Shown piece by piece: positions 772 through 49,943 of a stretch of 64,000 bases of DNA; the first letter of the stretch is position 1, and the number at the start of each line of letters is the position of its first letter. A program made the translations under genes and the position numbers. This stretch comes from Ophioderma brevispina (Eukaryota > Echinodermata > Ophiuroidea > Amphilepidida > Ophiodermatidae), in contig JAMKCH010078825.1 in NCBI GenBank assembly GCA_023653785.1, positions 1-64,000 on the forward strand. Reading direction: 5' to 3'. A model generated the notes under the pieces. The model ran no database searches. It was not told where the DNA came from and saw only the letters and a program-made list of their open reading frames with translations.

Positions 772-1396
772 ATTTCGGAATAACGCAGTTCTTTCTCGAT
801 TCGGAATAACGCAGTTCTTGCTGGATTCGGAATAACGCAGTTCTTGCTCGATTCGGAATAACGCAGCTCTTGCTGGATTCGGAATAGCGCAGTTCTTGCT
901 GGATTCGGAATAACGCAGTTCTTGCTGGATTCGGAATAACACAGTTCTTGCTTGATTTGGAATAACGCAGTTCATGCTCGATTCGGAATAACGCAGTTCA
1001 TGCTCGATTCGGAATAACGCAGTTCATGCTCGATTCGGAATAACGCAGTTCATGCTCGATTCGGAATAACGTAGTTCATGCTCAATTCGGAATAACAGCT
1101 CTTGTTCGATTCGAAATAACACATCTTCGGAATAACGCAGCTCTTGTTCAATTCGGAATAACACACCTCCTGCTCAATTCGGAATAACGTAGCTCTTGCT
1201 CGATTCGGAATAACGCAGCTTCGGAATAACGCAGCTCATGCTTTATTCGGAATAACACACCTTCGGAATAACGAAGTTCTTGCTCAATTCGGAATAACAC
1301 ACTTTCGGAATGACGCAGCTCTTGCTCGATTCGGAATAACACAGCTATTGCTCTATTCAGAATAACGCAGCTTCGGAATAACGCAGCTTCGGAATA
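772..1396. repeat. Minisatellite, ~26-bp unit
   Basis: This is a tandem array with a consensus unit of about 26 bp built on TTCGGAATAACGCAG, then TTCTTGCTCGA. Roughly two dozen units are present. The first two-thirds are regular. From about 1100 onward units are mixed with short 16-bp forms (AGCTTCGGAATAACGC) that have lost the TTCTTGCTCGA half. The minus-strand translation gives a repetitive Glu-Leu-Arg-Tyr-Ser peptide that is an artefact of the repeat. The array abuts a TTAA-type element end at 1398-1467. Confidence 0.9.
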
Positions 1397-1397
1397 A

Positions 1398-8702: not shown

Positions 8703-9538
8703 GCTATAAAAAAATTTAATGCGTCAAATAGTTTAGATGATCACATAAACACCCCCAGGGGGGACACGTAAATAAATTATGCTGCACGGGACCTACAAGA
8801 GGAGGGGTAAAGACTTAAGTTACTATGGGGGTCAAATGTTTCAACTGCTCCAAACTAATGTAAGGAGCTCAAAGTATTCTTAGGTAACCAGGAGGAAAAA
8901 AGTCAATTGGGGTCACGGTGTGGTGCTTCCTTTCCAAGATATTTGGGAAAATAGGCTAAAGGTCATTTGTTTATTCAAGAAAGGCCAATATTTGTAATAC
9001 CCAGATTTCTTTGTAAAAATATTTTTTTTTTAGAAATGTTTAATGATACTGATTCCAAATTGAATGCTTTGCTTGGGCTATCTTCTTGTTATCGGGAATG
9101 GGTTCAAATTTCCCTGTAGGACTCTATGGGGTGGGGACATTACACCCCTCCCTATTAAAGGGAACCAACCCTATGCAAAATAAACGGCTATTTTGAAGCA
9201 GTATAATTAAATATTTTTTTTGATATTTTTTACAAAGAAGAAATCTTGGGATTACAATGTGACACTTCTTGAATAAACAAATGACCTTTCGCCTATTTCC
9301 AAATATCTTGGAAGGAAGCACCACACGCATGTGATCAAATTGACTTTTTTAACCCTGGTTACCAAGGATATTTGAGCTAGATTCCATTAGGTTTGGAGAG
9401 TTTATTTTTTAACCTGTGACCCCCCTAGTAATTGACCCCTCTTAACACCCCCCGTGCAGCTGATGAAAAACGTGTCCCCCTAGGCATATGTTTACTTATG
9501 GGCCATAGAAAGACTACCCAGGGCAACGTTTTTATAGC
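8703..9538. mobile_element. Foldback element, ~350-bp arms
   Basis: The arms at about 8703-9062 and 9182-9538 are imperfect inverted copies. Shared blocks include GGGGGACACGT, AGCTCAAA with TATCCTTGGTAACCAGG-like sequence, AAAAGTCAATT, GTGGTGCTTCCTT with CCAAGATATTTGG, and AAAGGTCATTTGTTTATTC. The spacer is about 120 bp. Both arms have accumulated many indels. No coding sequence is present, so it is best read as a non-autonomous foldback or MITE-like element. Confidence 0.75.
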
Positions 9539-22835: not shown

Positions 22836-23237
22836 AAACTTTACCCTGACAAGGATGGATATTTATTAATCTTTCCCTGGAGATGGCCAGCGCACACAAG
22901 TTACCAACTGAGCCACAAGACTGGGTTGGTAGAAGAACGATAGATATCATCTGTAGGTATTAGGTGTTCTGATGCTATCCGCTAGGAAAGCGAAGGACAC
23001 CCTTTCGAACCTAACACCTATAGATGATATCTATCGCTCTTCTACCAACCCAGTCTTGTGGCTCAGTTGGTTAGAGCGCCGTCACTAGAGATACCGGGCG
23101 GTCGCGCCCGGTTTCTAATCCGGCCAAGCGCATATGGGTTTTTTTCAACACTTGTGTGCGCTGGCAATCTCCAGGGAAGGATTAATAAATATTAATCCTT
23201 GTCTACCTGGAGAACTAAGTAGTTAAACTTTACCCTG
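22836..23237. mobile_element. Inverted SINE-like dimer with 13-bp target duplication
   Basis: The 13-bp sequence AAACTTTACCCTG flanks the insert perfectly at 22836-22848 and 23225-23237. The insert is palindromic from 22848 to 23213: ACAAGGAT, TTATTAATC, CCCTGGAGAT and CAGCGCACACAAG pair with the far end. The right half contains a tRNA-like promoter, TGGCTCAGTTGGTTAGAGC (A box) and GGTTTCTAATCC (degenerate B box). The left half has lost about 85 bp including the B box. This is most likely a head-to-head SINE-derived insertion. Confidence 0.75.
23042..23115 (+). ncRNA. tRNA-derived promoter region of SINE-like element
   Basis: The A-box-like TGGCTCAGTTGG and the B-box-like GGTTTCTAATCC are spaced about 45 bp apart, as in RNA polymerase III tRNA-type promoters. 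The B box departs from GGTTCGAATCC, and no full cloverleaf with a 7-bp acceptor stem can be drawn. It is therefore a tRNA-derived fragment, not a functional tRNA. Confidence 0.5.
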
Positions 23238-26200: not shown

Positions 26201-26765
26201 AAAGTTACAAAATTGAATTTGTCATGCACGAAAACATATAATTAGACACTTACATCTTTAAAATCGGTTAATATTAACAATTTGACCTTGACTGAAAGTG
26301 CATTGACCCTTGGACATTTTTTGCCATAGCGTCCTCATTTGAAGTCGGATCTATAACAAACTATATTTTTTTTTAGATTCCGGATGATAGGGCGAGTAAT
26401 TTGACATGCACATTAATTCAATTGCGACAGTTATCAATTTTTACCCCTATGTTAACTTTATTTCCCCTTCCCTAAAATGCCGGAACATTGAAGCGGCAAG
26501 CCCAAGTCAAAAACCTTCAACATGGATCAGAGAACCCCAAGACGCCTTCAAATCTTTGTCTCCAGAGTTTGGTCACGGGATCTACAGGCTGGTCTGCTAC
26601 TAGCACTTTTTAGAGATATTTTTTTCTACGAAATACATGTACGACATTTGTATTTTTTGGTGAATAATTTGATATTGCATTTGTCATTATATGTTGATAT
26701 TTTGTTCATCGTATATTAGTAATGGACAAGATCTGAGTACATCGAGGTGAAAATACGCTACTTAC
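23240..26765. other. Intron sequence; GC-richer block at 24.47-24.85 kb
   Basis: This is mostly AT-rich intron between the second CUB and second LDLa exons. A clearly GC-richer block at about 24470-24850 carries overlapping open frames on both strands and looks like a dispersed repeat, but I do not recognise it. Around 25700-25800 there are GGCGGCCATTTTG-type sequences like those of the repeat family at 54-56 and 63-64 kb. Confidence 0.4.
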
Positions 26766-27125
26766 CAATGTTCTGGTATTGAAAGACGCCCACTTTAAAC
26801 CCTACATACTCCTGCCTGTATCGGTAATTTTCAAGGGTAATCCACATGCTGTCACTGAATGAAGTGATAATTGCAGGAACAACAAAAGCTGCTCTTCTAA
26901 ACAAAAGAACACTGGACTCATTTGAAGGATCCAAACCGTCTCCGAACTTAACAGTGCTTGAAGTTATTGAGGGCTCATAGAATTCTACCGCTATGCGTGA
27001 CTGCGGCGAAGATTGTACAAACCAAAAACATGCGATATCTTTAATGGTTTCTTTAGGATAACCCGGTGACGATAACTCATGCACAGCTCCGTCGGAAATA
27101 TTCAAACTGAAGTGCCTGCAAGGGG
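26766..27125 (-). CDS. CUB domain exon (second visible)
   Basis: The exon is 360 bp, 120 codons, with acceptor TACTTTTAG, donor GTAAGT and phase-1 junctions on both sides. It opens with PCRHFSLNIS and LSSPGYPK, the typical S-P-x-Y-P of CUB domains. Then come the second Cys and Trp in CFWFVQSS, an I-x-V-E-F strand, and a closing strand around EYVGFKVGVFQY that matches the usual G-F-x-x-x-Y ending. The reading frame is intact. It lies about 10.7 kb downstream of the first LDLa exon. That intron holds the whole Gmr1-like LTR element, inserted in the opposite orientation. The partner LDLa exon is about 4 kb further along. Confidence 0.82.
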
Positions 27126-27149
27126 CTAAAAGTACCAAAAGAAGATTGG

Positions 27150-27290: not shown

Positions 27291-27799
27291 ATTTACTTAT
27301 GTTCTTTCGTGTTGTATTTTTTGCATACATACCGCAGTGCATTTCAATCAAAGCAATCTCACAATCATTGATTCCATTGCATAGGAAGGTTTATGTCTAC
27401 ACATAGCCTGTGGTACACATGAAATCACTATTGCATCACACGGAGCTGTATAAAAGGAAACAAACAATACCTTTGTTACTACAGCTGTCTCAAATAGTCC
27501 AAGTGAACAGCGCCTCTTCGGAAATTATAAATACTGTTTTGACATGATGCTTTTCATAACGTCAAGGGCGTGGCCTAAGCTTTCAAATGCGTTTTTACTG
27601 CGAGATAGTTTATTTAACATTCCAAATGTAAAAAAGGTGATTCTTTCTGTACGTCCCAGTGTCTCTTTAAGAGTGTGGGAGAAACATCACCGACTGTCCA
27701 AGTAGATAAAAGCCAAAAAGGAGTACAGTCATAATCAAAACGCTCTTTTCATTTCAGAGCTACTACAAACTTCCAAACAGATCAATTGATATTGGAAAT
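27291..27799. other. Intron sequence upstream of LTR element
   Basis: AT-rich sequence without a recognised feature. It ends at the TG start of the 5' LTR. Confidence 0.5.
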
Positions 27800-28793
27800 T
27801 GTCCTGATAGGTTCTACACTTTAATAATATATTGTGGCTTGCCTTTTAAAAATAAGCAATCCCTGGTCATTCATCCTGGTCAGCCAGGCATTAATGTGGT
27901 GTTACGTATGTCAGTTGCAGGAGCTATGCATTGTGCTGACACTGCTAATCCTCACAGGGGCCAACTGTCGACTGTGTTAGGGTGCCACACTTACGGTTAT
28001 CAGAGGATCAACATCTCCTTCATTTTGCAAATGCTCTATCTTGGTGGTTGACTGTTCCACAGAGGAGGGTAAAATAGGCTACTACCATGACTGGGCTCTT
28101 ACAGGTTTGCTAAAGCATAGTTAGGAAAGGAATCCAGCCCGTGTTCATTTTGGCATAAACGAGCACAAGAATCCACAAGGTTGTATTAAAGCCGACGCCT
28201 GTCACCGACTATTCATGTGTTGAACACCACCCAAGGTCTCCAAAGAAGAATCTCGTCCGTATAACTTTGGATCCTCATCTGGACTTAATATCAACGCCGT
28301 TTTCATGACCGGAGACTACATTAACCATATGGTTTCATTTCTTGGGTTTCGACAAGGCTTGATTGTAAGCCCTCTTTTCAAGCCGGCAAGATTACCATCT
28401 CCTCATGACTAATGAACTTCTTTTCCTGTCCACCAGACCAGTGCCGCCGAATATCCTTTACGGAGGCACAAGGGTTTTTTATTTTAATATTAATGAGTAC
28501 TCAAATTAATTGTATGTACATAGATTGTACTTATGTCGCGCATGAGTACTGGAAGAGAGATGTGTTAGAGTAATAATCTTGTCTCATGGTGCGAAGTTAC
28601 ATAAAACCTCCCTCTACCCAGACTACCCTCCAACACAAAATTAAATAGATCTAATTATTAAGTACACCATGCGAATAAAATACCGGAGAAATAGATCTGG
28701 TGTACATTGGTTTATTCGTTATACCAGTGTGATTTATTTTGCAGCTAAGTGACTTGTATTTGTCTGGCTAGCATCTTCAGGTTCGTACGTACA
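27800..28793 (+). repeat. 5' LTR
   Basis: It begins TGTCCTGATAGGTTC and ends ...GTACA three bases before the primer-binding site. It aligns with 33721-34775 throughout, for example GGTCATTCATCCTGG, CTACTACCATGACTGGG, CACCCAAGGTCTCCAAAGAA and CAGCTAAGTGACTTGTATTT. The boundary was set from the co-alignment of both LTR starts. Confidence 0.85.
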
Positions 28794-28796
28794 TTG

Positions 28797-28811
28797 TGGG
28801 GGCTCGTCCGG
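28797..28811 (+). promoter_or_regulatory. Primer-binding site, tRNA-Pro type
   Basis: TGGGGGCTCGTCCGG lies three bases after the 5' LTR. It is complementary to the 3' end of tRNA-Pro, as in murine gammaretroviruses. Fifteen bases match before divergence. It marks where minus-strand DNA synthesis would be primed. Confidence 0.85.
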
Positions 28812-28989
28812 TGAGTTAAAAAAACATTTAAATCAACCAGTTTCTGGTTAGCATTAAGTCACAGTGACGAATATTCTTCATGGTTTTCAACATTGGTGGA
28901 ATTGATCGGTGTCGACAGTTATGGCTTATTTGTAGTTCTGTTTGTTTTGTTTTTTTTTTACTTTGTTTCATTCCAATTTCCTAATTATG

Positions 28990-29925
28990 GATATTGCCGC
29001 CCTTACTGCCTAGGTGAAAGATTAGGGTCCATAAGGGGGAGGCCCTGCAAGCGTTGTAAAACAGGGCGTATCGCGCTAGCATGTTCTTATGAACAAAGTG
29101 AGGCCTGCAATTGCAATATGAAATTGAGGAATTAAAACAAGAAAATGCTGCAAAGGGCAAAGATGCTCAAGAACCGAACTGTTCAGAAAAAGGCCCCTGT
29201 CCCTAAATTGCCCGAGTTTAGTGAAGGGACAATGATATGAATGCCTACCTTCAGAGTCGAGAGGGTCATGCACCGTCTAATAAATGGAAACCTGAGATTT
29301 GGTCTCTATATCTCAGTGCCCTTCTACACGGCAAGCCCCGGAACATCTGCAGCATGCCATGCTTTGCATGTAGGGTTTTATTCAGTTCCTGCAACCACAA
29401 TGGCAATTGTTTGAAAACATATCACCTCACCTGAAGGTGGTTTTAGTGTAAATTTCGGAATGCTAAACCTGAACAAGGCGAAAATGCACATCATTTGCAT
29501 GCTAGTGCTCCGCATAACTAGATCGTTGTGATTGATTTTCAACAACTACCACAGAGTTACAGGATTGGTTGATTTCTTGATGCGTGAGCCTTGAACCATG
29601 TACTCACTCTGAAAATGTTCTTTATATTTATTATTCAAGACGCAAAAAGCTAAACCTAAATATGACTAAATGTGCAGAACAGTACTTCGAAGCAAGGGGT
29701 ACTTGGGGTGTCGTATCAGGTTCGTTGTCAAAGGAAGGCTCACCTAAAGTAATCAGTCATGTGCAAAGCAACTAAAACTCCCCTAAGCTCAATCATGGTG
29801 CTAACACTAGTTCTGGACAAACTAAAACTGAGAGAAGACCTTTGATAAGGTGCTTCATTTGTGGGATAAGACGGGCACAAAGCTTGCCTACGACCGTCCA
29901 AAAGTAACTTAAGGGGCAAGCCAGT
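28990..29925 (+). pseudogene. Gag remnant, SCAN-like capsid and zinc knuckle
   Basis: Fragments in several frames give PKLPEFSEG, AYLQ followed by RVMH (28.99-29.28 kb), KWKPEIWSLYLSALLHGK (29.28-29.33 kb), then SLEPCTH (29.59 kb) and CAEQYFEARG (29.67-29.70 kb). The series 'A-Y-L-x-R-F-E', 'W....LS.LL.G', 'A-x-Q-Y-L-x-A' is that of Gmr1-type Gag capsids, from which the vertebrate SCAN domain is thought to derive. A degenerate CCHC knuckle starts CFICG near 29852. At least five frameshifts or stops are present. In a working element this would form the particle shell. Confidence 0.65.
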
Positions 29926-30199
29926 CTACCACAGATGATTCATCAGTGCATCCAAGGTCTAGAAACCGTAGTAACAGGTAAAAAACAAAACCATTGCTCA
30001 GCCTGAAAAGTGTTCCTGAAGTTGGTAAGCCATCTAAATGTACTGCTTGCACTTGTGCTACATGTACTAAGTCCAGACTGAAAAGTACCGCTTTTAAAAT
30101 GGTATAGAATGTTCAAGAGATACATTGGACACTTCCAAGGGGATGTTACTAGTCGTGTGGTCACAGCCTTCCGGTCTAAGTGCTGCCTGTAGTCCACAA

Positions 30200-30480
30200 A
30201 GGGGGTTCAGAAAATGCCCGTAAACTGTGGAAGATTGGTAATTGTAAAGTCAGTGTCCTTCGTCAGTGGGTTTGTTACGTCGTAGCTTGGTTTCAGAGTA
30301 TCATTTTATCGGGTGGAGTAAAACTTGCATGGGATTGATGGAAACACATAAGGAAAGTTCCTGTCGCCCTATGTAGATGTAGATACCCCATATCTAACCG
30401 GAACAGTGAGCGCTTTATGTATGGACAACCCTTTGAGATGATGATTTTGGGTAATGTGTCGGTGTCATAGATCCGTTCTA
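30200..30480 (+). pseudogene. Retropepsin-like protease remnant
   Basis: The readable C-terminal half shows RKVPVA, VDVDTPYLTGTVSALCM, DNPL and ILGNV, matching the strand pattern and the hydrophobic I/L-L-G-N motif of retroviral-type aspartic proteases. The catalytic D-T/S-G is not legible in any frame. It sits between Gag and integrase as expected for a Gag-Pro-Pol order. The assignment rests on position plus the C-terminal motif. Confidence 0.5.
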
Positions 30481-30649
30481 ATCAAACGGACTGGAAACAT
30501 AGTTGTCAAGAAGATGCAAGTACAGAGTTGGAGAGTGACGTTACCGTGTCGTCCAACCAGAAGTCATAAGACGGCTCAGAGAAGCCAATGAAGAAGCTGA
30601 GAAGTTGCCAAGTTTGTAACCCTAGGTCAACTGCAACAAGCCCAACAGC

Positions 30650-31880
30650 TTGACCCTACTTTCAAACAAAAATTCGCGTGAAGTTACGAAGTCTGGTGCA
30701 GTAAATATAACTCCGTGTGACGGTCCTCAAAGTATTGTTTGTATGGACGGTATTCTTTACAGAGATTATCAATCCCCTTCTGTTAACTTCGGTGATTATT
30801 CATCAGGTTTTTCCCCCGGCATACCGTCTTCAATGTCATGAACTTTATCCCATGAATCTCGTCTCTGGGTGGTCATGCAGGTATACGTAGACTGCTTCCA
30901 GACTTGAATCACTTTTTCTGGCCAGGGGTCCAGGCCTGACATTACTAGATTCCTGCAGATCAGGGTGGATAATATTTAAATAACCATCCCCAAATGTCGT
31001 GTTGGTAAAGTTCCCCTTGGGTAACATGCCAGTTTTTTATAGATGTTCCTTTCATAGCCATGGATATAGTGGCACCAATTTCGCCATCTACTGAGCGTGG
31101 ACATAGGTTCATCCTGACTGTGGTTGGATTATGCCACGCGCTCCCATAAGCTGTGCCACTTCGCCATATTGATGTCCATCCCTGTGTCGCTGAAGCACTT
31201 ATGAGCATCTACTCTAGGGTTGGCTTTCCCCGAGAATTTTTGTCGGATAAGGGGTAAGACCAGTTCCGTTCTGAGGTCTGACTGAATTAATAGACTTCTT
31301 TCTAATCCGTCCACTCACGACTACCGCTTGGCATCCCCAGGTGCAATGGACTTTGTGAGCGCTTTAACGCTGTTCTAAAGTCAGATGCTCCGCAAGATGT
31401 GCGAGGAACGTCCCGCGTGGACTGGGGACAGATACATCGATGCCCTACTCTTTGCCTACATGAAACTTCTCATTCAATCATCGCTTTTCACCTTTCGAGC
31501 TGCTCTACGGTCTATCGGTTAGAGGTCCTCTCGACATGTTAAAGGAGTTTGGTGGACTCGGCAAGGTCTAAGAGCCTGAAGCCAAGTCCACATATATGAA
31601 CTATGATGTCTTGGACTTTAGAGATCATCTTGAAAAGACATGTGAAGTTGCTAAAGAAGAAATGCTGAACTCTCAGGGCAAATACAAAGATGTAGTTATA
31701 CTAAATCAAGATCATTCAAGGTAGGAGATGAGGTGCTGCTGCTGGTTGCCTACTGACCACAACGACTTCGCTTACATTGGAAAGGTCCCAATTCCTGTCG
31801 TGTACAAATTGTCCACTGGATTAAAGATGATTAGGTACCAAGGTCAACATTCCATTCCAATCTTCTGAAAAGATACTACC
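30650..31880 (+). pseudogene. Integrase remnant (upstream of RT)
   Basis: The zinc-binding domain is visible at 30.85-30.97 kb: LGGHAGIRR, then LNHFFWPGVQ, with the CxxC only partly legible. The catalytic core follows: first Asp in AMDIVAPISPSTERGHR (GAT at 31063-31065), FILTVVGL where the second Asp-containing V-V-D is Gly, RVGFPREFLSDKG with an Asp (31246-31248), and NGLCERFNAVLK with the catalytic Glu (31357-31359). A C-terminal segment near 31710-31870 holds the GDEVLLL-like region and a LLKRYYR-like end. It lies before the reverse transcriptase, unlike standard gypsy elements. Several frameshifts and stops make it non-functional. Confidence 0.8.
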
Positions 31881-31999
31881 GCAGAGATTAACCAAAGGAT
31901 GTAATGAGCTCATGTCTTGGAGGTGGCTTTTACCTACTGCATTTTTATTGAGTGGTTAGACAATATAGATGGTAGTGGCAGGTGGGATCACTGGGTAAA

Positions 32000-32870
32000 T
32001 TATGTCTAATGTAACACCTCTTCAGCCCCTACATTCAAGCAAGGAGACTATCACCACTGAATGCTGAGCCGATCCCTACACTCATAAATTTTGCCAAGAT
32101 TGGGAATGCACGCTATTTTTCCAAGTTGGATTTAAGCAAAGGTTCTGGCAAGTCCCTCTTACTGATGATTCAAAGCCTTTAAAGACCCCCACTATCAGTG
32201 ATTGCTAAATCAAGCAAATCGAAAAACATTTAAAAAATCAGATGTTTTGCATGTCTGTAGTCGTAAACACAACTTACAGGTATTCCTAAATACCCTGCCC
32301 AAAGGATAAGACCAGAAGCCAACCACTACCTTAATATGGACAGAATCGGAGATTTTAAGTCATTAAGTGTCCGAACGGACCAATTACTAAAACACGTATT
32401 GAATGGAGAATCAAATCTTGGAACCACTGCCATTTTCTTCCTTTTCTGTCAATTCCACAGCTGGAAAAGGTTACAATTATGAGAATTTAACAGACTTATC
32501 CTTCACTTTGAGCTATTCTGCAAATTCAAAATAATTTTTCAAATCACTGAAGTGTCTTTAACAGCTTTTATAGCTCCAGATGACGCTTGTATCAAAAAAA
32601 AGTTTTTTCCCCAGGAAGATGCCATTTGGATTGGTGAATGCTGGTCAAAGACTTTTTACATACAAGAATCAATGATAAGCTATTAAAAATCTCTGCCCGA
32701 TGTAAACAATTTACAATCGACGACCTCTTGGTACACACACTACTTGGGAAGATCACCTGCTCAAATGAATCAACTATTGAAGAGCTTACGAGACGCTCAT
32801 CTAACTGAACATGCCAAACCTTCCAATGTTTCTTTGATATGAGAAAGTGAGTTCTAGGTCCAAAGGTGGG
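32000..32870 (+). pseudogene. Reverse transcriptase remnant, split by a MITE
   Basis: Motifs of gypsy-type RT in order are PLNAEPIPTLINFAKIG, YFSKLDLSKG (catalytic Asp), WQ-VPLTDDSK (32.09-32.18 kb), then after a 371-bp insertion TAFIAPDDA and MPFGLVNAG (32.56-32.64 kb), and TIDDLLVHT with the Asp-Asp pair at 32719-32724. The Tyr of the usual Y-x-D-D is Thr here. The thumb region EFLG..VG lies near 32850. Frameshifts are frequent. Confidence 0.85.
32177..32563. mobile_element. hAT-like MITE inside RT
   Basis: An insert at 32185-32555 (371 bp) is flanked by CTTTAAAG (32177-32184) and CTTTAACA (32556-32563), an 8-bp target duplication with two changes. Its ends are inverted: CACTATCAGTGATT at the left pairs with AATCACTGAAGTG at the right. 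Removing it brings the RT motifs DSKP and TAFIAP next to each other in frame, which independently confirms the boundaries. No coding sequence inside. Confidence 0.75.
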
Positions 32871-33129
32871 GAAATGGGTTTACCACACACCTAATCATCC
32901 TGATAAACTCCCGGACAGTCAGATTCTCCTAGACCAGAACCAAAACGCATTGAAGTCAATTCTTGGGTCAGGCAGTTTCTCTAAAGACAGTATATCCCAA
33001 ATTTTGGAGGTATATTTGCACTTATCTAGACACCCAAGCTGGAGAACCAAATAAAGATCAGATGGGAGATGGAACAAAATGGACTCCTTAAGAAGTTGAA
33101 GAGTATGCTGGTGAAATCTCCTATCCCTT

Positions 33130-33470
33130 ACATTTGCCAGACTTTAGCCTCAATTTATCTTGCGTACAGACGCCAGTGAGGTTGCTGTAGGCGCAGGTCC
33201 CTGCTACAAAGACTTTGGGCGTAGTCAGTTTCCCCATTGCTTACCTTAGCAAAACTCAACAAACACAGGTGCTGATTCATTACTGGAGAAAGAATGCTTT
33301 GCTGTGGTATGGGCTGTCCTTAAGCTCGGAGACTTATCTATACGGACGAGAGTTTATCTTGAAGACAGTCATCAACCACTCCTATGCCGTGAAACGCTCC
33401 AATTTGCCAATGGTCGCATTATGCGATGGGCTTTGTCCCTGCAACCCTCAGATTCAGGATAGTAGATAGC
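33130..33470 (+). pseudogene. RNase H remnant
   Basis: The start TDASEVAVGA is legible near 33165-33190 with the first catalytic Asp. SFPIAYLSKT (about 33225-33255) matches the 'P-I-A-Y-x-S-K-x-L' segment of gypsy-type RNase H. ALLWYGL and GREFILKT..NHSY follow. It ends about 240 bp before the 3' LTR. No integrase follows, which fixes the unusual domain order. Confidence 0.75.
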
Positions 33471-33706
33471 GGCCATCAAAGGTAGCGACAACATATGAGC
33501 GTACTACACTGGAGTAGGATTTTGAAAACATGTAGTTCAGGTAATATTTATTTCATGACTTATTTATGATAGTCAATAGATATTTTAGCCAAGTGTTCTA
33601 TGGAGGACATAAATTCAAGCTATAATATATACTGTGAATCCACTTATTTTAGGTGGTATATAAACATATCTTTGGTTAGTAAAATTGTCTGTAATACAAA
33701 TTTACT

Positions 33707-33720
33707 TAAGGGGACAGAAA
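33707..33720 (+). promoter_or_regulatory. Polypurine tract
   Basis: AAGGGGACAGAAA lies directly before the TG start of the 3' LTR, the standard place for the plus-strand primer of LTR elements. Confidence 0.75.
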
Positions 33721-34775
33721 TGTATCCATGAGTAGGTTATACCACCTTTCAAATATGTGTTGGAGCTTGCTTTAAAATAAAAGCAAGTCCTGGTCATTCA
33801 TCCTGGCCAGCCAAGGCATATGTGGTGTTATCCTTGGTATGTCAGTGGCAGGAGCTAATGCATTGTGCTGACCACTGCATCCCTTTTGTTTGGTATGCAC
33901 AATGGAAGTATGTCGAGTAGCAATCCCACAATGCCACGTAAAGACGGTGTTAGGGTACACAAACTTACTGGTTATCAGAGTAGAAACATCTCCTTCATTT
34001 TGGCTCATTGACAAAAGCCTATCTGGGGTGTTGAACGTTTCCATAGGGTAAAATAGGCTACTACCATGACTGGGATCTACAAGTTTGCTAAAGCAAATAG
34101 TTAGGAAAGGAATACGCCCTTTTTTCACTTTGCATACACGACGCAAACAAGAACCACAATGTGGTATTAAGCCGACGCCTGTCACCGGACGATTCCATGT
34201 GTTGAACACCACCCAAGGTCTCCAAAGAAGAATCTCGTCCGTATATTTGGACCTATCTTGACTTAATACCAACCCGTTTCAAGTGCGGAGACTACTTTAC
34301 CATATGTTCATCCTTTCTTGGTGTCGACCGGCCTGTGATTGGGAAGCCCTCTTTTCCAGCCGGCAAGATGACCATCTCCTCATGAACTGAATGAACTTTC
34401 TGTCCACCCAGGCCAGGCCGCCTGATATCCTTTACTGAGTGCACGTTGTTTTTTTTTAATACATATTATGAGTCCTCAAATTAAATTTGTATGTACTTGA
34501 TTTTCATTATGTCCGTCGCATGGAACTGGACGAGAGATGTTTTAGAGTAATAATCTTGGTTCAATGTGCGAAGCTTCCTAAAACATCCCTCTACCCACTA
34601 CCCTCCGACACAAATAAAAAAAAAATTAAATAGATCTAATTATAACTACACAGGAATAAAATACTGGGAAATAATCTTGGTGTACATGTGGGTTTAATTC
34701 GTTCTACCATGTCTTTATTTTTGCAGCTAAGTGACTTGTATTTGTCTGGCTAGCATTTTCAGTTATCCGTGGACA
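33721..34775 (+). repeat. 3' LTR
   Basis: It starts TGTATCCATGAG, ends ...GTGGACA, and is collinear with the 5' LTR. It is about 60 bp longer because of scattered indels. Identity is clearly below that of a recent insertion, although indels outnumber substitutions by eye. Confidence 0.82.
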
Positions 34776-37700
34776 GTAAGTTACTGTGGAAATCGCGAGA
34801 TGCCTATAATTAATCTTGACCGATTTTGCAGTTGTAATCCTAATGTCCCCAGTGGAAAATACTACCAACCTGACAGCAACCGCAAAAGGAGGTACCTTAT
34901 TTGTCTGTTATAAGATCTAGGAGAAAATTTCCCACAAAACCAAGATGTTTTTTAAAATTGGCAAAATGGCATTCAGGGGATTTAAGATATATAAATGGTA
35001 TTTCGACCATGGCAGTTAATGAACACTGAAGAAAAACCAATCTAAAATCCAAAATAAAAGTTCCTAGCGCTTGAAAGATTTACATTTACATAATGACATT
35101 CCGTGCAATTTCTAATGTGGAGAATGTTACAAGTAGTACCTCTGTCTATCTTACACGAAACCAGGGTAAGATTATCCACTATTTGGGGTGTGATAAATAG
35201 AAAATGAATTTTTGTATTTTTTTCTTGAACTTCAAATATTTTTTCAGTGAATGTAAACAATTGACATCGATTCCGGTAGTCTTCCCTGTACCTAGTGACG
35301 TTTTTTCGAACCCAGTAGGTGCAGTTAGTAAAATGGAAAAGCATTCCACTTTGGCTATGTCCAGAATAATTATGTAACAAACCCCTAAAATGAACCACCA
35401 TAACTTTTAAAAGAAACGAGTAGCATTCGAGGGTAGTATTTATGGACACTGCAGTCCATCTTCAGACACTTAAGGGTTGAATCAAGCTAAAGATGGTGAT
35501 TTCAGTCATCACGGATAAGGAAGGAAGGACGACATCTATTATTTTCATGAGAACGGACGCAGTGGCATTGTGGTTCGGGAAAAGACCCCATTTTCGCAGG
35601 TTAGCACTCATTGCACTACATCGGCATAAGCTAAAATGTAGAAGGTATTTGGGTACTTTCATAAAGGGCTGCCTCATGTAGCGTCTTTATGCCTTATGAA
35701 GGTCAACAAATTTATTTAGACATCACTTGGCTACTTGGCCACATCTCTTGATGAGTATGCAAAAAGTTAAGTAGGATGGCGCAACCATGTTTTTTCCCTA
35801 AATGTGGCTAATACCAAGCTCATGTATCTGGTGCTGATCAGCCCGATGACCACTTGAGATGAAATTGATAGAATCACTGGATACAACTCTTGGTGCATTA
35901 ATTAAACAGGAAGGTGGATGTAAAGATGAACTTGGAGGACACGCTTAGCTATGGTCAGATGGACAGTGGTTAAAGTTGGCCAGATCAACAGTGCGTAAAG
36001 TAACAAGGGTCTGAGAAGATAGAGACACCACTCAAACAACTAATTGTCGCCTGGTCCGGGCTGTGGTTTTCCCAATCGCAACCCACGGGGGTGGATCACG
36101 GACTTTGACCAAGGCTGACAGCAGGAAGATCAGTGGTTTTGAGCTTGTGGTGTTGACGAAGAATGCTGAGGGTTCTGTTTACTGATAAACGATCTAATGA
36201 CAGCGTCCTCCATGAAATTAAACAGGTGTCTCGCATTCAGCTAGTATGGTCACATCTCCAAGGGTAGTTGCAACTGTCTTGAAAAGGTGGTACTCCAGGG
36301 AAAGGTTGAATGATCCCGAAGATCAGGAATACAAGAGACCAGATGGATTACCCACTCGCTGCTGTCTACAGGGTGACAGAAGATCGTCACAAGTGACATG
36401 CCATTGTGGAGGTCACGACCTGTTAGTCATGATGGAAGCGTACCAAGCAACAATTGAAGAGCTGATATGCAAAAGGGCTTATGTCCATTTTTACCGAAAT
36501 TGAGTTATTAGTATTACATTATAATGCTAACAAAAAATTCACATTGTGGTGCTTGTTTGACTTTCATGCCTCCTTCCCTTCCTGAGATATCATAATTTTT
36601 CCCTTTCGGAAATCTTCTGGAATTTCCGGAAATTTTGACTTAAAATGCTATAAAATCTCAGAAAAATTTTTTTTTATCCTTTTTTGATGTTTTATGGTAG
36701 CTTTCAATATGCTTTAACTTTCAAAACCAGAAAAAAAACTGTTTTAAAGTCACTATAGGTGAAAAAAATAATTTTAATTAACAAAAGTTGCTGTTTCGGA
36801 AAAACTTTAAAAATTACAGAAATGGCATTTTGGTCAAAATAATTAAATGTTCATAATTTGAAAAATAAATGAGATATTCATTTGTTCTTTTTATTTTTTC
36901 TCGATAAAAGCGTATTTAGGATTAAAAACAGCCTGTGCATGTGATGAAGTAGTAGTACGATACCAACTCAAAATTGATGGCGAAAAATAACATTGATGAT
37001 TATAGAGGGCACCCTTCTCTCCTTATCCGGGGCGATTGTATCCTTTAATCGGGACCCAGTCAGGACTGATCACGACCGATAAAACGTGAACACCCCTCTT
37101 AACTATTTGTTGTATAAGTGTGTGGAAGTTATTGAAGTGAGTAATGGTGAGTCCAACGGATGCAGGTACAAAAACACGACAAGGATCAAAAATTGATACA
37201 AGAGATTACCTTGAATAAGCGAAAATGAGGGAGGTGAGGCAAGGTGTACCAACTTGGCGTGGGGAGGGGAATGTAACACGGAGAAACAAGTGTGACACAG
37301 TAAAGTGCGAGAGCCACAAATTACAGAGTAACAGTACAAAAGGGGGTAAAGAACATAATATAGGCCTGTATGTAAATGTAAGGCCTGTACGGTAAAGGAA
37401 AACAATGCACTGGGTAGGAGTAATAAGAATTACTGTGCAATGTGAAAAAAGGAAAAAAAACAACAAACAAACAGAGGAAATTACCAGAAATTAAGTAGAA
37501 CTGTGGCAGAGCAAAGTACGATAGCCATAAATTGCAATGTCACACAGCACAGATTAAAAACTTGGGGACGGGGACAATACAGGCAAAATGTGGATGTTAT
37601 TCAAAAAAATTAGTCACGAATTCAATTATGTTATTTTTTTTAATTATTGACTTATATGATCCGAGAAGTCATGAGTGAAGTGAAAAAAACAACAACAGAA

Positions 37701-37919: not shown

Positions 37920-38109
37920 CTAAAATAAAACAAATAGAGATTGTTTTTATATATTGACTTAAAATAGCCATATTGAGGTAGCATATGCCTTATATTAATT
38001 TTTCATGTGTCTATATATTCAAAAACATTTTGACAAATTAATTTCTTTTGTTGATATTGCTGGTAAGCTAGTAGATGATCAGTTTGAAATACTCGATACA
38101 ATATCTTAC

Positions 38110-38466
38110 TCTTTTCAAAGACGCTGAGCTCCACAAGAAAATACGTATCTTCAGTAACACTTCCGTCTGTTGAAAAGAATACCCACATCTTATTTTCTGC
38201 TGACCTTACACGTAGAGGCGTCACGCTACCCTTGCGTATCAGCAACTGTGATCCCAGATCTAACGGATTGAAATCATTTCCAACCGAAAAGGCATCGTCT
38301 CCCCAAAGACGAAAATCAGAGAAAGACATACCTACTCTAGTATCCACGGGTGTTTGAACAGTCCATGTGCATTCAAAAGATTCAATTACGGGTAGTGGAT
38401 AGGAAAACGAAGACAGGTTAAATTGTTCATTGTAGGCAAGATCTACATTTGAAATGCTGCAATATC
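38110..38466 (-). CDS. CUB domain exon (first visible)
   Basis: This 357-bp exon encodes about 119 residues. The acceptor is a pyrimidine-rich tract ending TTTTTAG; the donor is GTAAGA; both junctions are phase 1. CUB hallmarks are visible: an early Cys (YCSISNVDL), an FECTW segment with the second Cys and the conserved Trp after about 30 residues, a hydrophobic strand with FSDFRLWGDDAF, and a closing YFLVELSVF strand. No typical Cys3-Cys4 pair is obvious in the second half, as in some divergent CUBs. The frame stays open upstream as a hydrophobic stretch starting with Met, which could be read as a signal peptide. I prefer the internal-exon reading because the pyrimidine tract itself encodes Leu/Ile/Phe and the acceptor phase matches the other exons. 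It is followed 190 bp later by an LDLa exon. Confidence 0.75.
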
Positions 38467-39871
38467 CTAAAAATGACAACAATATTAACATCATATTAGT
38501 GAGAAACATTCCATCAAATATAATGGTCATTGAAACAAAATTAATTCCACATTTGGAATCTAAACTTTGCTAATAATCTAATAATACGTTTGTGGATGTA
38601 TGTATGTGTAAGATATTTAATCTTCAAACACTTAACCCGGACTTTGGGCTACTTTTAGCCCCGATTCGCTTCAGCGGTTCCATTGTTTTAGCGCAGAGAA
38701 GTTGAACCATTGCGGAAAGCTAGCGAGATATAACAGTTCTGACCGGAACCTGTTCTTGATTTCTAGCCATAATGTCTCGCCTCCAAGCCGTTTTCAATGA
38801 AACTGCAACCCATATCAGCTGGTCTGCCCACACAAGTTTGCCGTCGGGAGGTCATTATTTGCCAATCTTTATCGCTAAAGTTCCTGGTCTGTTAGGCACA
38901 GGATTTGGCCTAGGCCGGGTGGGGGTCTCAAAGGACGGAAGTCGTCTGAGATTTTTTTTAATTGAAGAACCATAGCCATAGCCATGTGCAACATACATAT
39001 AAGTAAACACTTATTACCAACAATAAAAATAATTAACCCTTTATGTGCTGAAAATAAGCAATTTCATTGTGGACGTTGCTAAACCGTTATCAACATAAAA
39101 TAAGTTTTCATAAAGTTTGATGTAAGTACAATGCTCATTGGAATTGTCCGTCTTTTTGCCCAATTTTCGCGTGTTTTGAAAAAAAAAATGTTTTGCCCCT
39201 AATTTGAAGCCCAAATAATAAATTTGATTATGATTGCTGATTTTTATTGTCTTATGACCTTCTACATGTGGTATAAATTTCGTGCAAAAATTTGTCTGGA
39301 AAGTATTTTCGTTAGTGTGTGGTCCCATGGACCCCCCCCCCCCCCTTGGGCACTAACGGGAGTGAAACCCCTTGGTCACTTACATGTTATTTGCCTCTAA
39401 GTAAAATCTGTATAACTGTTTTGGGGAATATTACATCTAAGGCGATGGGAAAAAAATCTGTTTTACGGGCGAGCGGACCTTTCGAGTAGGGTCGTTCGGT
39501 CGGGCGTTTTTTTTTTTCTTTTCCGGAGGTCAAAATTAGCTTAAATAGCTCCAAAATCTAAAAAAAAAATTAAGAGAAAAAATGAAAAATGTTTACAACA
39601 AATTCCAATAACAAAAACAGCCAAAATTGGTAAATTTGGGCTAAAAATAGGCTGATTTTACATGGTTTTTGGAAAAACTAAAAAATCTGCAAAACTGAAA
39701 AAATCAGGGTCGGTCGGGCCCGTTAAACAGGGTGTTTTTTTCGTCGCCTATAAGCGCTGGATCTATGCTCACTTAGCGGAGCGTTACAGCAGTAATACGG
39801 ACGCCATTATCGGAAATCTGTTGCCATGGGTTTTTGCGCATGCGTAATGACCTGATACGGTGTGTGGGTTC
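38467..39871. other. Non-coding sequence upstream of first visible CUB exon
   Basis: No upstream exon of the CUB-LDLa gene was recognised. A run of 13 C lies near 39331. The GGTCGTTCGGTCGGGCG block near 39490 and GGTCGGTCGGGCCCG near 39708 are similar and may be ends of a small element. The 67-codon frame at 38772-38975 has no known domain. Confidence 0.4.
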
Positions 39872-39987: not shown

Positions 39988-41699
39988 AAGATTAAGTTAA
40001 GAGAAAGACGGGCCCTGGACGGCACCTGCTTCCAGTCTAAAAAAATGATATCAAATATATAAAATATATAGCCGAATTATAATTCCCATAGCTACGGGAC
40101 CAATTTTAGATAATTTTGGGAGGTAATACTTGCTTGTATTTCCTTTGGTAATACCTGCTCGGATTACCTGTATATAGAAGTTTCGAGTTTAGGTGGCTCT
40201 GAAAAGAGAGACATGTACGACTTGTGTGTGTCTGTGGGACATTTTATATTCCTAAGTCTGCTGGTAAATAAAACTAATTAATTAATAGTACTATATCTTC
40301 TCCCTGGACCTTTGTATCTATATATTTATACCCGTCATATGATGAATATGACCGACCTACGTAGTTCGATATGTTCTTGGCTGGCTTATCAGAGAAACCC
40401 CCATCTTAAACTTGGAGTTAACTCTTCTATGAGTCTTTATTGTTCGTAACCTTTATACCGAAATAAATAATTGTATACTTCTGTATACTAGTCTTTAATG
40501 AACTGAATATACTACTCTTAGTCTCTCGAGCCTTCGTAGTATTGTAAAGTAAAGTTAGCACTTCTTTTAAGTTGTGTGCTTTCTCCCGGAAATAATCAAA
40601 CAAAGGAGATGTACCATCGCTTTTTCAAAAAAACGGCAGGATATCGTGACTTGGCTAATTTGTTCTGGTAGCTCCTTTGTGTATGCTCGGAGCTGGTTTG
40701 GTCATCCTATTGTTCCTTGGATAAGTAGTTAGGAATCATCCTCGAATTCCTATCCCGAAAAACCTAATTACAATTCGGACTATTGTCCCCACTATCTCCA
40801 AGAGATGTGAGATATGTAAGCTATAAAAAAAATCTAGTTTAGGAACAGTATAAATACCGTTTTTCCCCTTACTGAAAAGAGGGGGGGGGGGAACTCCATG
40901 CTTATCTGGCATGAATTGCTTAGCATGCAGCTAGCAAGACGTACGTTTCTGAACTCCTTCACAGGGTTCTTCATCAGTTGCACTGCTGAGGTCGGAATAT
41001 TTACTGACCCATGCTAATTTAAAAAAGTACAGTCCCGAAAAATCGGGTCTATACCTCAGTTGACTATTGTCAGCTGGAGATGTTGAGTTTAGAGTGCAAA
41101 CCCAAAATTCGTATTTGCACCTCTGTCGGCATGCTTGCTTCCCGAAAATGTTATAAAGCCCAGTTGCGGATGCCCGCCCTGTGCCTCGGTTAAATCTTTT
41201 GAATATAATCTAACCGGAGAGGAACACTCACTTCCAAACTGAATGCGGTGACTTCATTGAACTTAAGTTCGTGAAGATTTGGTGGCTCTGAAAAGAGCCG
41301 TTTGGTTTATGGTTGACTACCTTGTCAACAAAATAGGGCCTAAAAATGTTTAACTACTGTGTCACGCTTTCCTGTGACACAGTGCCGCTTGAACAAGCCC
41401 CTTCCTCTTCCAGTTCTTCAACTAGCAATGTCGGAGATTTGGGTGAGGGGGGTCGTTCCCTAACAGAACTTCGTTAGTTGAAAAGTAATCACTGAGCCCC
41501 CTACTCTCCAGTTCTAGATCTTGCAGCATATGAAGGGTAGGCGACCCTGGGCGTGGATCGGGTTCAGTGTTGGATTCATTCGCTGTTGTTAGTCTTGCCC
41601 TGATTAGAATATCGCTAAGATTTTCTGTCCTACTGAAAGCTACAATAGGAACTTCTGGGAATATGCGCTTGGGTTCAGGATGTTTTACGAAATAAGTTC

Positions 41700-42850
41700 C
41701 CCAGGTTGCGTTAGTGCATTCTTGATGTGTTTACTTTCGATGTGCGGATGGTAGTTGATTTTTAAAGACTAGAGGGATTCGATCATCACTTTGTTTTTCT
41801 GTGATGAATCTCTGTCTTTCGTTAAAGTCTACTTCCCTAGAAGCTTCTTGTATTTCGCGTCGGCTCAGCTGTAACCCCTTGCTAGGAGTTTTTCTGTGAA
41901 TACTGATTCTTTTCCTCGTATGATTCAATGTTGTTCGAGTTGCGTGCATATCTGATAAGTTCACCTTTAATGAATCCCCTGAATACTGAGGGGCTGTGGC
42001 GTGAATTTCTATCTAAGTAACATCACGTTTCTGTGGGTTTCGTGAAACATCTAATATCTAAGATGTTTGAAGGTTAACCTTTAACCTTTGTAAATAATTA
42101 GGTCCAGGAATTGGATTTCTTGATTAGAAGCTCTATGCGTGAATTTGATTGACGGGTTCATATCGTTTATTCTTGAGTATGACCTCTATTCTTCCATTGA
42201 ACCTGACCACATTAGGAGCGAATCGTTCATATAGATATTGGAAAGAGACTATTTTAATCATTATTCATGTCCATAATTCTTTGAACTAATTTATTTATAC
42301 TAAGCAACATAATGACGGACTGGATCTTAATCCCATTGGACAGCCATATACCTGGTAGTAGAATTTGCCATTAAATTCAAACGCATTGCGATAAAGCACG
42401 AGTTTTAACAATTTACGCATATATGCCAAGCTAGGCTGGGTGGGTCGAAGAAGTGGGTTTACTTTAGCTAAAGTTCCCATAGCGATTTCAAACACTTCTT
42501 CTTGAGGCACGGCTGTAAACATACTAACGACGTCTATGCTCGCAACTATAATGTCGTTAGGAAGAACTAAATTTTCCACTTTTCGAATAGTATCAGCCGT
42601 GTCTTTCAGGTATGCTGGCGATTTTTTCACCTCTGGCAAGAAGGTAAAAAGTTATAAATTCCGCTATTATTATTTTACCGGTCTACCTACAAAAACTTGG
42701 TTCGGTTCTGTGAACTTGCGTCGTGAACATGCGGTAGCAAAGAAAATACTGGAGTTTTGGTTTCATGGCTTGTTTCCGGGTCCTAAATGTTCCGCTAGGC
42801 TTTGTCTATTTCCTTGGCCCTAAACATTTCACACACTAAGTCACTCACCA
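41700..42850 (-). pseudogene. Penelope-like reverse transcriptase remnant
   Basis: The 114-codon open segment at 42295-42639 reads PAYLKDTADTIRKVENL, then IIVASIDVVSMFTAVP (catalytic Asp of motif A), then NAFEFNGKFYYQVYGCPMG, the 'G-x-x-M-G' turn before the catalytic motif. Upstream a GRP-like and FITFYLL segment matches the preceding RT finger region. Downstream, GELIRYARN and PLVFKNQLPSAHRK continue the C-terminal part across several frames. These are features of Penelope-like RTs. The Y-x-D-D segment after 42295 is not legible, and no GIY-YIG endonuclease was found in this copy. Confidence 0.65.
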
Positions 42851-43339: not shown

Positions 43340-43512
43340 GAAATAGTGGCTTACTGTATTTTGCGAAACGAAACGAAACAGAACTCCCATTGGATTACAC
43401 GCTTTATTCCGTTAATGCACGTTATGCATGCATGACGGAATAAAGCGTGTAATCCAATGGGGGTTCTGTTTCGTTTCGTTTCGTTTCGCAAAATACAGTA
43501 AGCCGAAATAGT
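43340..43512. mobile_element. 157-bp palindromic MITE with 8-bp target duplication
   Basis: GAAATAGT is repeated perfectly at 43340-43347 and 43505-43512. The insert 43348-43504 is a near-perfect palindrome. GGCTTACTGTATTTTGCG, a run of CGAAA pentamers, then AACCCCCATTGGATTACACG-like sequence and CTTTATTCCGT pair with the second half around a short ATGCATGCAT loop. The right arm has one extra pentamer. An 8-bp duplication suggests a hAT-type origin. Confidence 0.9.
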
Positions 43513-48342: not shown

Positions 48343-49206
48343 ACAGGGTGTTTCAGAGAGAATTACACCCTGACTATTGGTGACCATAACTTCAAAAGTG
48401 AATATAACATTTGATAAATTTAAAAAGAATCTTAAACCACAATTATTTTTCAATATTTTAATGTAAACAGCATTCGATTCAGTAGTTTTGAAGAAATAAG
48501 TGATTATGTAAAACATGTCAATGGACACTTCCTTCCAAGTTTTGTAATAAAGTGATTCAGACAGAACAGGCGAGAAATGATCAATACTTTACAATACAGT
48601 CAGGTTCAAAATAATATTGCACATACATTACAAAATTACATCTTTTCTTTTTCACTTAAAAATTGAAGAAATGTCAGTGACATCTTCAGTCTTTTTAACA
48701 AATTAATGTTAATACCATGGCTGTCGCCAATCCAAGCAAATCCCTTTTTCATTTAATTTAAATTGCATATCATCAGGCAGCTTTCTAGAAAAGTTATGCT
48801 TTGAAATTAATATTGAAAACGAAGTAAAGTTTGATATTCAACTAGGTTATACATTATAAAAATCTAACGGTTTCAACCACCAAATGTTCACCTTTTTCTG
48901 TTTCCTAAGAATTGATTCAGATGTGTAGATTTTCCGTTTTGATAAAATGCATTCAAGATTTGTATTGTCTTGGACTTAGACAAAGACTTCGTCTGATGAT
49001 CAATGTTGTGTAAAGCTCGGGCGGTTCTCCGCCTTCCGCGACTCTTGTTCAAATTTTGACTTGTACCCGTTTTTACGGTACTTCTTAACATTATTCAAGA
49101 TTGTCTTCTTGCAAGGAGGATTTCTGTGGAACTTTAATCTAAATTCATGCCTGACCAGAGTAATGTTATGACCAGTTTCGGCATATCTGAAAACCACAAA
49201 CGCCCT
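48343..49206 (-). pseudogene. DNA transposon remnant with HTH transposase N-terminus
   Basis: Minus-strand frames give LHRAFVVFRYAETGHNITLVRHEFR, then FHRNPPCKKTILNNVKKYRKNG, and after a frameshift LNKSRGRRRTARALHNID. This is the N-terminal helix-turn-helix region common to a large family of mariner-related transposases (DUF4817-like), ending in the G-R-x-R-T-A-R segment. The DDE catalytic domain is missing: within 550 bp downstream comes GTACAGGGTGTTTCAGAGAG at about 48348, a sequence resembling the terminal repeats of such transposons. The element therefore looks internally deleted. Its upstream side is cut by the foldback at 49207. Confidence 0.6.
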
Positions 49207-49943
49207 ATGAAGTTTAATGAACAAATATAGCGGGGTGCCCCTCGAGAAAGTGTGGTCGGAATCCAGTAGGGGGAAATTCATATTACAGGTGTCAAAAATG
49301 AAAATGCTTGGATTGCTTTAAAGAGGTAACCAAAGTGTTCTGTCACAAGGATTAAAAATGGTATAGTTTGTACTACCTACAAGGTATGGTTACCGAGGTA
49401 TAAGACAAAATTCGTCCAATGTCAAAGGTCATCACCAAATGTTACATCTTTAATATTGCACCGATTTCTTTATAAATGGTCTCAAATTGTTAACCTTTCC
49501 AAAGGGATTGCAACAAAAACAGTTGCCCCTCTCATTTGTATTTGTTTATCGAGATAAATGACAACAAGGTCAACCCCATTGACCTCTATTGATCTCCGAA
49601 TTTTAAAAATATGTTAGACGGTGCAAAATGTTTTGTTGCAGTCTCTGAGGAAAGATGAACAATTTAAGAAGTCCATTTTTGAAGAAATCGAGCAATATAT
49701 AAGATTTAATCTTTCGTGATGACCTTTGACATTTGATGATTTTTGTCTTATATCTCCATAACCATACCTTGTAAGTAGTACAAACTATACTTTTTTCAAT
49801 CTTCGTAACAAAACGAACATTTTTTTTTACCTTTTTACAGCAATTTTCATTTTTGACCCCTGTATTTTGAATTTTCCCCTCCTGGATTCCGCCCACATTT
49901 TCACGAGGGCACCCCGCTAAATTTGTTCATTAACTTTCAAAGA
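49207..49943. mobile_element. Foldback element, ~320-bp arms
   Basis: The arms at about 49207-49530 and 49610-49943 are inverted copies. GAACAAATATAGCGGGGTGCC, GGTCAAAAATGAAAAT, TATAGTTTGTACTAC, TACAAGGTATGGTTA and AATGTCAAAGGTCATCAC pair across a spacer of about 80 bp. No coding sequence. It lies at the start of the decayed transposase frame, so it probably inserted into that older element. Confidence 0.85.

What the first reader, a model, noticed from the sequence alone, without database searches (positions are those of the whole stretch)
27800..34775. Gmr1-type LTR element: integrase lies upstream of reverse transcriptase
Seen: integrase motifs (LGGHAGIRR, HFFWPGVQ, MDIVAPIS, FLSDKG, NGLCERFN) at 30.85-31.36 kb come before RT motifs (LDLSKG, TIDDLLV) and RNase H (33.13-33.47 kb). 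Only 250 bp separate RNase H from the polypurine tract and 3' LTR, so no integrase can follow. Known: gypsy-type proteins in a copia-like order characterise Gmr1 elements, first described from Atlantic cod. Inference: this is a new member from this animal's genome.
Basis: partly seen in the sequence, partly recalled or inferred. Interest (0 to 1): 0.8.

Follow-up and report, generated by a model that had tools for sequence, protein, structure and literature searches.

The report
Decayed Gmr1-type retrotransposon, integrase before RT
This is a dead copy of a known kind of jumping gene (a Gmr1-type Ty3/gypsy LTR retrotransposon) in what looks like a brittle-star genome, with its integrase ahead of its reverse transcriptase as is usual for that group, and a second small transposon sitting inside it.

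Summary
Two LTRs (27800-28796, 33721-34786) enclose one element. Its gag, protease-region, integrase (INT), reverse transcriptase (RT) and RNase H remnants run collinearly on the + strand, with INT (30.68-31.9 kb) before RT and RNase H (32.05-33.5 kb). RNase H ends about 200 bp before the polypurine tract and 3' LTR.

A nested-element or shuffling artefact is unlikely. Of 16 other genome sites with this INT, 12 have RT and/or RNase H downstream on the same strand, 4 show none in the stretch held, and none has RT upstream. Of 145 database proteins returned, 125 have INT first, 5 the ordinary order and 15 cannot tell. In trees the INT, and the RT of the nearest copy, fall with brittle-star (Amphiura) INT-first elements, apart from the host's ordinary gypsy elements.

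Frames are broken, and a few hundred bp are missing between INT and RT. This copy is dead.

The order is the published hallmark of the Gmr1 clade, so this is a new member of a known kind. Interest is low.

The parts
27793..27799 (.). left copy of the candidate target-site duplication TGGAAAT (a 5-6 bp duplication GGAAAT/GAAAT fits equally)
   Evidence: exact match to 34787-34793 next to the 3' LTR; exact boundary uncertain
27800..28796 (+). 5' LTR (997 bp)
   Evidence: aligned to 33721-34786: 870 matches, 70 substitutions, 92 indel events
28797..28811 (+). primer binding site TGGGGGCTCGTCCGG, matching the 3' end of animal tRNA-Pro
   Evidence: sequence read directly; the tRNA-Pro identity is recalled, not from a call
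29102..29862 (+). gag remnant (region that in relatives holds the SCAN-type capsid domain and zinc knuckle)
   Evidence: tblastn with P0002 (41.7% id, E 3.8e-18 at 29102-29488; 29620-29862), P0007, P0033; no gag or SCAN Pfam hit in the window itself
30153..30676 (+). protease region and INT N-terminal extension, remnant
   Evidence: collinear tblastn matches of P0002, P0003, P0007, P0033; no Pfam protease hit in the window
30677..31939 (+). integrase (zinc-binding H2C2, catalytic core, C-terminal part), frames broken
   Evidence: 16 other genome sites at 65-88% DNA identity
32045..32178 (+). reverse transcriptase, first piece (LDLSKG motif)
   Evidence: tblastn with P0003, P0005, P0007 and others; DNA match to ten other loci, best L030 at 93%
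32179..32561 (.). nested non-autonomous DNA transposon (MITE-like) with TTAA on both sides, terminal inverted repeats TTAAAGA..CACT.TCAGTGA
   Evidence: not in any of the 19 other loci of this search; at 7 sites the RT runs on across the point with no room for it, 4 printed; inverted ends 6th of 1284 TTAA pairs in the window; copy number elsewhere not tested (search unanswered)
32562..33100 (+). reverse transcriptase, second piece (TIDDLLV) and connection
   Evidence: tblastn with P0003; DNA match to L030, L032-L035, L037, L038, and a 28-bp match to L044
33101..33507 (+). RNase H
   Evidence: Pfam PF17917 E 4.1e-10 at 33148-33459; tblastn to 33507
33708..33720 (+). polypurine tract (AAGGGGACAGAAA)
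   Evidence: sequence directly before the 3' LTR
33721..34786 (+). 3' LTR (1066 bp)
34787..34793 (.). right copy of the candidate target-site duplication TGGAAAT

Best explanation
The locus is a dead copy of a Ty3/gypsy-type LTR retrotransposon of the Gmr1 kind. When its ancestors were active, the element was transcribed from the 5' LTR, probably primed by tRNA-Pro. It was translated as a gag-pol polyprotein in the order gag-protease-integrase-RT-RNase H, copied to DNA, and inserted by its integrase with a short target duplication (replication steps inferred from the family; LTRs, primer site, polypurine tract, candidate duplication and domain order shown here). After insertion, on the strand opposite to flanking CUB-domain open stretches, it decayed by substitutions, indels and a deletion between INT and RT, and a TTAA-type transposon jumped into its RT. 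The host is most likely a brittle star or close kin (inferred).
For: LTR pair, primer site, polypurine tract and duplication. Collinear homology to single proteins with INT (H2C2, rve) before RVT_1 and RNase H, most with SCAN in front. INT before RT/RNase H in 125 of 145 database proteins returned, ordinary order in 5, undecidable in 15. 12 of 16 other genome sites with RT/RNase H downstream of INT, 4 not found, 0 upstream. Trees: window INT inside the INT-first group (29 rows, 100/99) next to Amphiura rows (95/99), with 17 host ordinary-gypsy integrases outside; RT of the nearest copy L030 with Amphiura (99/93) inside a 25-row group of INT-first elements only (99/94). Host kinship: INT of L030, L043 and L044 is 81.5-87% identical to Amphiura filiformis P0003. 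Nested insert and uninterrupted sites.
Against: Pfam recognises only RNase H above cut-off in the window itself. The window rows sit on long branches (2.45 to 4.71 changes per column) because their frames are broken. In the RT/RNase H tree three INT-first proteins (P0017, P0020, P0025) fall among the ordinary ones, unresolved, so INT-first elements are not cleanly one group there. No sequence named Gmr1 was in the trees. Four of 16 sites showed no RT in the stretch held. The LTR pair differs by more indels (92) than substitutions (70), so part of the frame damage could be assembly error.
Confidence: 0.95

Rival explanations
1. An ordinary Ty3/gypsy element (RT-RNase H-INT) whose parts were shuffled here by rearrangement or misassembly.
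For: The host genome has ordinary-order gypsy elements (18 of 20 fetched show RT-RNase H-INT, 2 show no INT), and this copy is indel-rich.
Against: The same INT-then-RT arrangement recurs at 12 of 16 other sites and in proteins of other animals. The INT groups away from the host's ordinary gypsy integrases.
Confidence: 0.02
2. Two nested elements: an INT-bearing fragment (30.6-31.9 kb) inserted in a gypsy element.
For: The INT-RT junction is shortened, and a nested insertion does exist further on, in the RT.
Against: No repeats flank the INT part. gag, protease region and INT are collinear with single proteins, with no room for an RT between protease and INT. The same junction order is seen at other sites.
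Confidence: 0.02
3. A Ty1/copia element, which naturally has INT before RT.
For: Domain order alone.
Against: RNase H matches PF17917, the same model found in the relatives. The seven relatives scanned have H2C2/rve integrase (7 of 7), RVT_1 and RT_RNaseH (6 of 7; P0002 lacks them) and SCAN (6 of 7; not P0010). No copia model was matched.
Confidence: 0.01

Closest known systems
Gmr1 clade of Ty3/gypsy retrotransposons (Goodwin and Poulter 2002, seen only as a reference-list entry; passages in PMC8220671, PMC6238403, PMC3587641, PMC11117352)
   Same: Integrase upstream of RT, gypsy-type enzymes, two LTRs, about 7 kb with the nested insert (6.1-6.5 kb listed for pufferfish-order Gmr elements).
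   Different: LTRs of about 1.0 kb are longer than the 337-518 bp listed for those elements (PMC11117352 table). This copy is broken and holds a nested insertion.
INT-first proteins of the brittle star Amphiura filiformis (P0003, P0034; P0002 has gag-INT only)
   Same: Collinear domains. Nearest rows in INT and RT trees; nearest host copies 81.5-87% identical in INT.
   Different: The window copy itself is only about 44% identical over broken frames.
Ordinary Ty3/gypsy elements of the same genome (L009-L028)
   Same: Homologous RT, RNase H and INT.
   Different: Order RT-RNase H-INT in 18 of 20 (2 without INT found), and separate branches in the trees.

Membership tests
Gmr1 clade (Ty3/gypsy) | Integrase encoded upstream of reverse transcriptase | tested here: met
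   INT 30.68-31.9 kb, RT/RNase H 32.05-33.5 kb; 12 of 16 other sites agree, 4 show no RT, 0 disagree
Gmr1 clade (Ty3/gypsy) | RT and INT group with other INT-first gypsy elements, apart from ordinary ones | tested here: met
   (RT by the nearest copy L030, because the window RT is broken); three INT-first proteins fall outside the main group; the named cod Gmr1 was not available
Gmr1 clade (Ty3/gypsy) | Gypsy-type RNase H, zinc-binding integrase and core | tested here: met
   RNase H PF17917 4.1e-10; INT by homology E 2.5e-34, but Pfam H2C2 alone only E 0.019
Gmr1 clade (Ty3/gypsy) | gag with SCAN-type domain (SCAN is reported to derive from a Gmr1-like gag, PMC3424704 passage) | tested here: inconclusive
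   6 of 7 relatives scanned carry PF02023 at E<=0.01 and the window gag is collinear with them, but no SCAN hit in the window pieces
Gmr1 clade (Ty3/gypsy) | LTRs, primer binding site, polypurine tract, short target duplication | tested here: met
   exact LTR end and duplication length uncertain
Gmr1 clade (Ty3/gypsy) | Integration and reverse transcription activity | not testable with these tools
   copy is broken; no expression or activity data
Ordinary Ty3/gypsy | Order RT-RNase H-INT | tested here: not met
Ty1/copia | Copia-type RT/RNase H and integrase | tested here: not met
   RNase H model PF17917 as in the relatives, no copia model matched; no named copia element was in the trees

The most novel reading that the evidence does not exclude
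The copies form a separate brittle-star lineage of Gmr1-type elements, with unusually long (about 1 kb) LTRs and a tRNA-Pro primer site, that has split into several families within this genome.
Probability: 0.35. Interest if true: 0.22.

Novelty: new member of a known kind. Interest (0 to 1): 0.15.

Why it matters
It adds a probable ophiuroid family to the INT-first gypsy group and shows the reversed order recurring across independent copies; INT-first proteins were returned from echinoderms, molluscs and a crustacean (names, order). The order itself has long been in print. The TTAA insertion adds a layer (transposon into retrotransposon). No open question is newly made testable.

Tried and rejected
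Pfam scans of short window pieces mostly failed because of broken frames, and a PDB sequence search of one INT piece found nothing. A viral-contig scan with an RNase H piece gave 19 pattern matches but no relative. tRNA scan: none. Rejected: shuffling or misassembly, nested INT element, Ty1/copia (see rivals). A copy-number search of the nested insert and of the LTR, and a mitochondrial marker search to name the host, were repeated but did not complete.

Selection to note: the 145 proteins are everything listed by three searches. One search listed only its best 120 of 5367, so the set leans to close relatives. The 20 ordinary gypsy loci were 20 of the 150 RVT_1 matches listed (150 of 24231 candidates scored there), picked for short RT span and mostly long open frames, so they are not a random sample. 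One search listed 26 matches; 6 weak ones had no locus and were not examined. Trees used subsets; 44 database rows plus the window; 36 plus the window; 50 rows; 49 and 47 rows. Of the 18 host loci with INT, 17 had a piece long enough for the INT trees; proteins with short domains were dropped.

Full report
Observation. Two LTRs enclose them: 27800-28796 and 33721-34786, both starting with TGT and aligned with 870 matches, 70 substitutions and 92 indel events. Directly after the 5' LTR is TGGGGGCTCGTCCGG, which I recall as the complement of the 3' end of animal tRNA-Pro. Directly before the 3' LTR is a polypurine tract (33708-33720). TGGAAAT flanks the element on both sides. Exact LTR ends are uncertain: neither LTR ends in the expected CA at the point where the duplication fits best.

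Domain order. tblastn of relatives gives one collinear series: gag 29.10-29.86 kb, protease region from 30.15 kb, INT 30.68-31.94 kb, RT 32.05-32.18 kb and again from 32.6 kb, RNase H to 33.51 kb. There is no space for an RT between protease and INT, and only about 200 bp between RNase H and the polypurine tract. Pfam sees RNase H in the window (PF17917, 4.1e-10) but not INT or RT above cut-off, because frames are broken. In seven relatives scanned, Pfam gives H2C2 and rve in all, followed by RVT_1 and RNase H in 6 (P0002 lacks them), with SCAN in front in 6 (not P0010). With profiles made from relatives, 125 of 145 database proteins have INT before RT/RNase H, 5 have the ordinary order and 15 lack one of the two.

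Same genome. The genome (2.51 Gb, 65,844 contigs) gave 26 DNA matches to the window's INT, the window included. Loci were given for 16 other sites; 6 weaker matches were not examined. At 12 of these 16 sites RT and/or RNase H lie downstream of INT on the same strand, at 4 none was found in the stretch held, and at none is RT upstream. By contrast, of 20 other gypsy-type RT loci fetched, 18 show RT-RNase H-INT and 2 show no INT.

Trees. The window INT groups with four Amphiura rows (99/100) and, with host elements added, falls in the INT-first group (29 rows, 100/99) with Amphiura proteins (95/99), away from 17 host ordinary integrases and 4 others. The RT/RNase H piece falls in a group of 14 rows, itself included (97/94); the other 13 are INT-first elements, and those with names are echinoderm. 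In that tree three other INT-first proteins (P0017, P0020, P0025) fall among the ordinary ones, unresolved. Window rows are long branches because their frames are broken. The nearest copy, L030 (88% DNA identity to the window INT), has an open INT piece and places cleanly: RT with Amphiura (99/93) inside a 25-row group of INT-first elements only (99/94); three ordinary rows from other organisms (P0035, P0115, P0146) lie just outside that group and all host ordinary ones further off. Its INT also groups with Amphiura. No row named Gmr1 was available, so the clade name rests on the published definition: integrase upstream of RT (passages read in PMC8220671, PMC2774666, PMC3587641 and PMC6238403). 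Goodwin and Poulter 2002 was seen only as a reference entry.

Damage. The RT is split by 32179-32561. In copies L030, L032 and L038 the sequence reads straight through (..AAAGCCTTTGACAGC..), L034 reads through with a small local difference, and the window has TTAA on both sides of the insert. At 7 sites the two RT pieces match with no room for the insert between them, and the insert is in none of the 19 other loci of this search. Its ends are inverted repeats, ranking 6th of 1284 TTAA pairs in the window. About 0.2-0.3 kb is missing between INT and RT (my estimate). Many indels break the frames. The excess of indels between the LTRs is unusual (general knowledge). Other comparisons are mixed: a 139-bp tandem repeat in the window has 15 substitutions and 1 indel, the two comparisons of a 214-bp one have 8 and 16, and 4 and 11. 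Among copies, L031 against L030 has 104 mismatches and 12 gap openings, L032 against L030 has 215 and 156, and the window against L030 has 78 and 49. Whether part of the damage is assembly error is left open.

Host and setting. INT of L030, L043 and L044 is 81.5-87% identical to an Amphiura filiformis protein, so the host is probably a brittle star. This is inferred from one family of mobile elements, with no other brittle star named among the hits, and the species is not known. CUB-domain open stretches lie on the - strand on both sides (26758-27138 and 38003-38569), so the element may sit in an intron, in opposite orientation.

Verdict. The observation and the interpretation hold; the element is a new, dead member of a known kind.

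Noticed in passing
window 41259-41304 (-), within repeat 41230-42660 (-): A histone-mRNA 3' stem-loop (RF00032, 34.7 bits, cut-off 34) follows remnants of an RT that looks Penelope-like (RVT_1 E 0.0016, below cut-off; Penelope by recall). It belongs to a repeat family: 43 genome matches, window included, 40 of 94 candidates scored. Of 11 other loci, 10 align through the stem-loop. 4 of the 11 score E <= 0.1 at that place (L051, L054, L055, L059), 2 of them over the cut-off (L055, L059). No histone gene was found in these loci or the window with recalled core histones, and three narrow paper searches returned nothing. A retroelement using a histone-type RNA 3' end would be worth a study of its own.
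   Followed up: partly
window about 40186-40210 (-); L056 3883-3928 (+), L059 3919-3964 (+): A second histone-like stem-loop about 1.0-1.1 kb downstream of the first, damaged in the window and scoring 29.8 and 31.5 bits, below cut-off, in L056 and L059.
   Followed up: partly
window 32179-32561: TTAA-flanked MITE-like insertion inside the RT of the retrotransposon; the ends recall Kolobok/T2-type elements (from memory). Its copy number in the genome could not be searched.
   Followed up: partly
window 26758-27138 (-) and 38003-38569 (-): CUB-domain open stretches on the opposite strand on both sides of the element (Pfam CUB 6.4e-07 and 8e-09), perhaps exons of one gene with the element in an intron.
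   Followed up: no
window 774-1397: Tandem array of a 26-bp unit (TTCGGAATAACGCAGTTCTTGCTCGA) with variants.
   Followed up: no
window 22866-23185, 49205-49942, 8820-9431, 43348-43504: Inverted (palindromic) repeats that look like other MITE-like elements.
   Followed up: no
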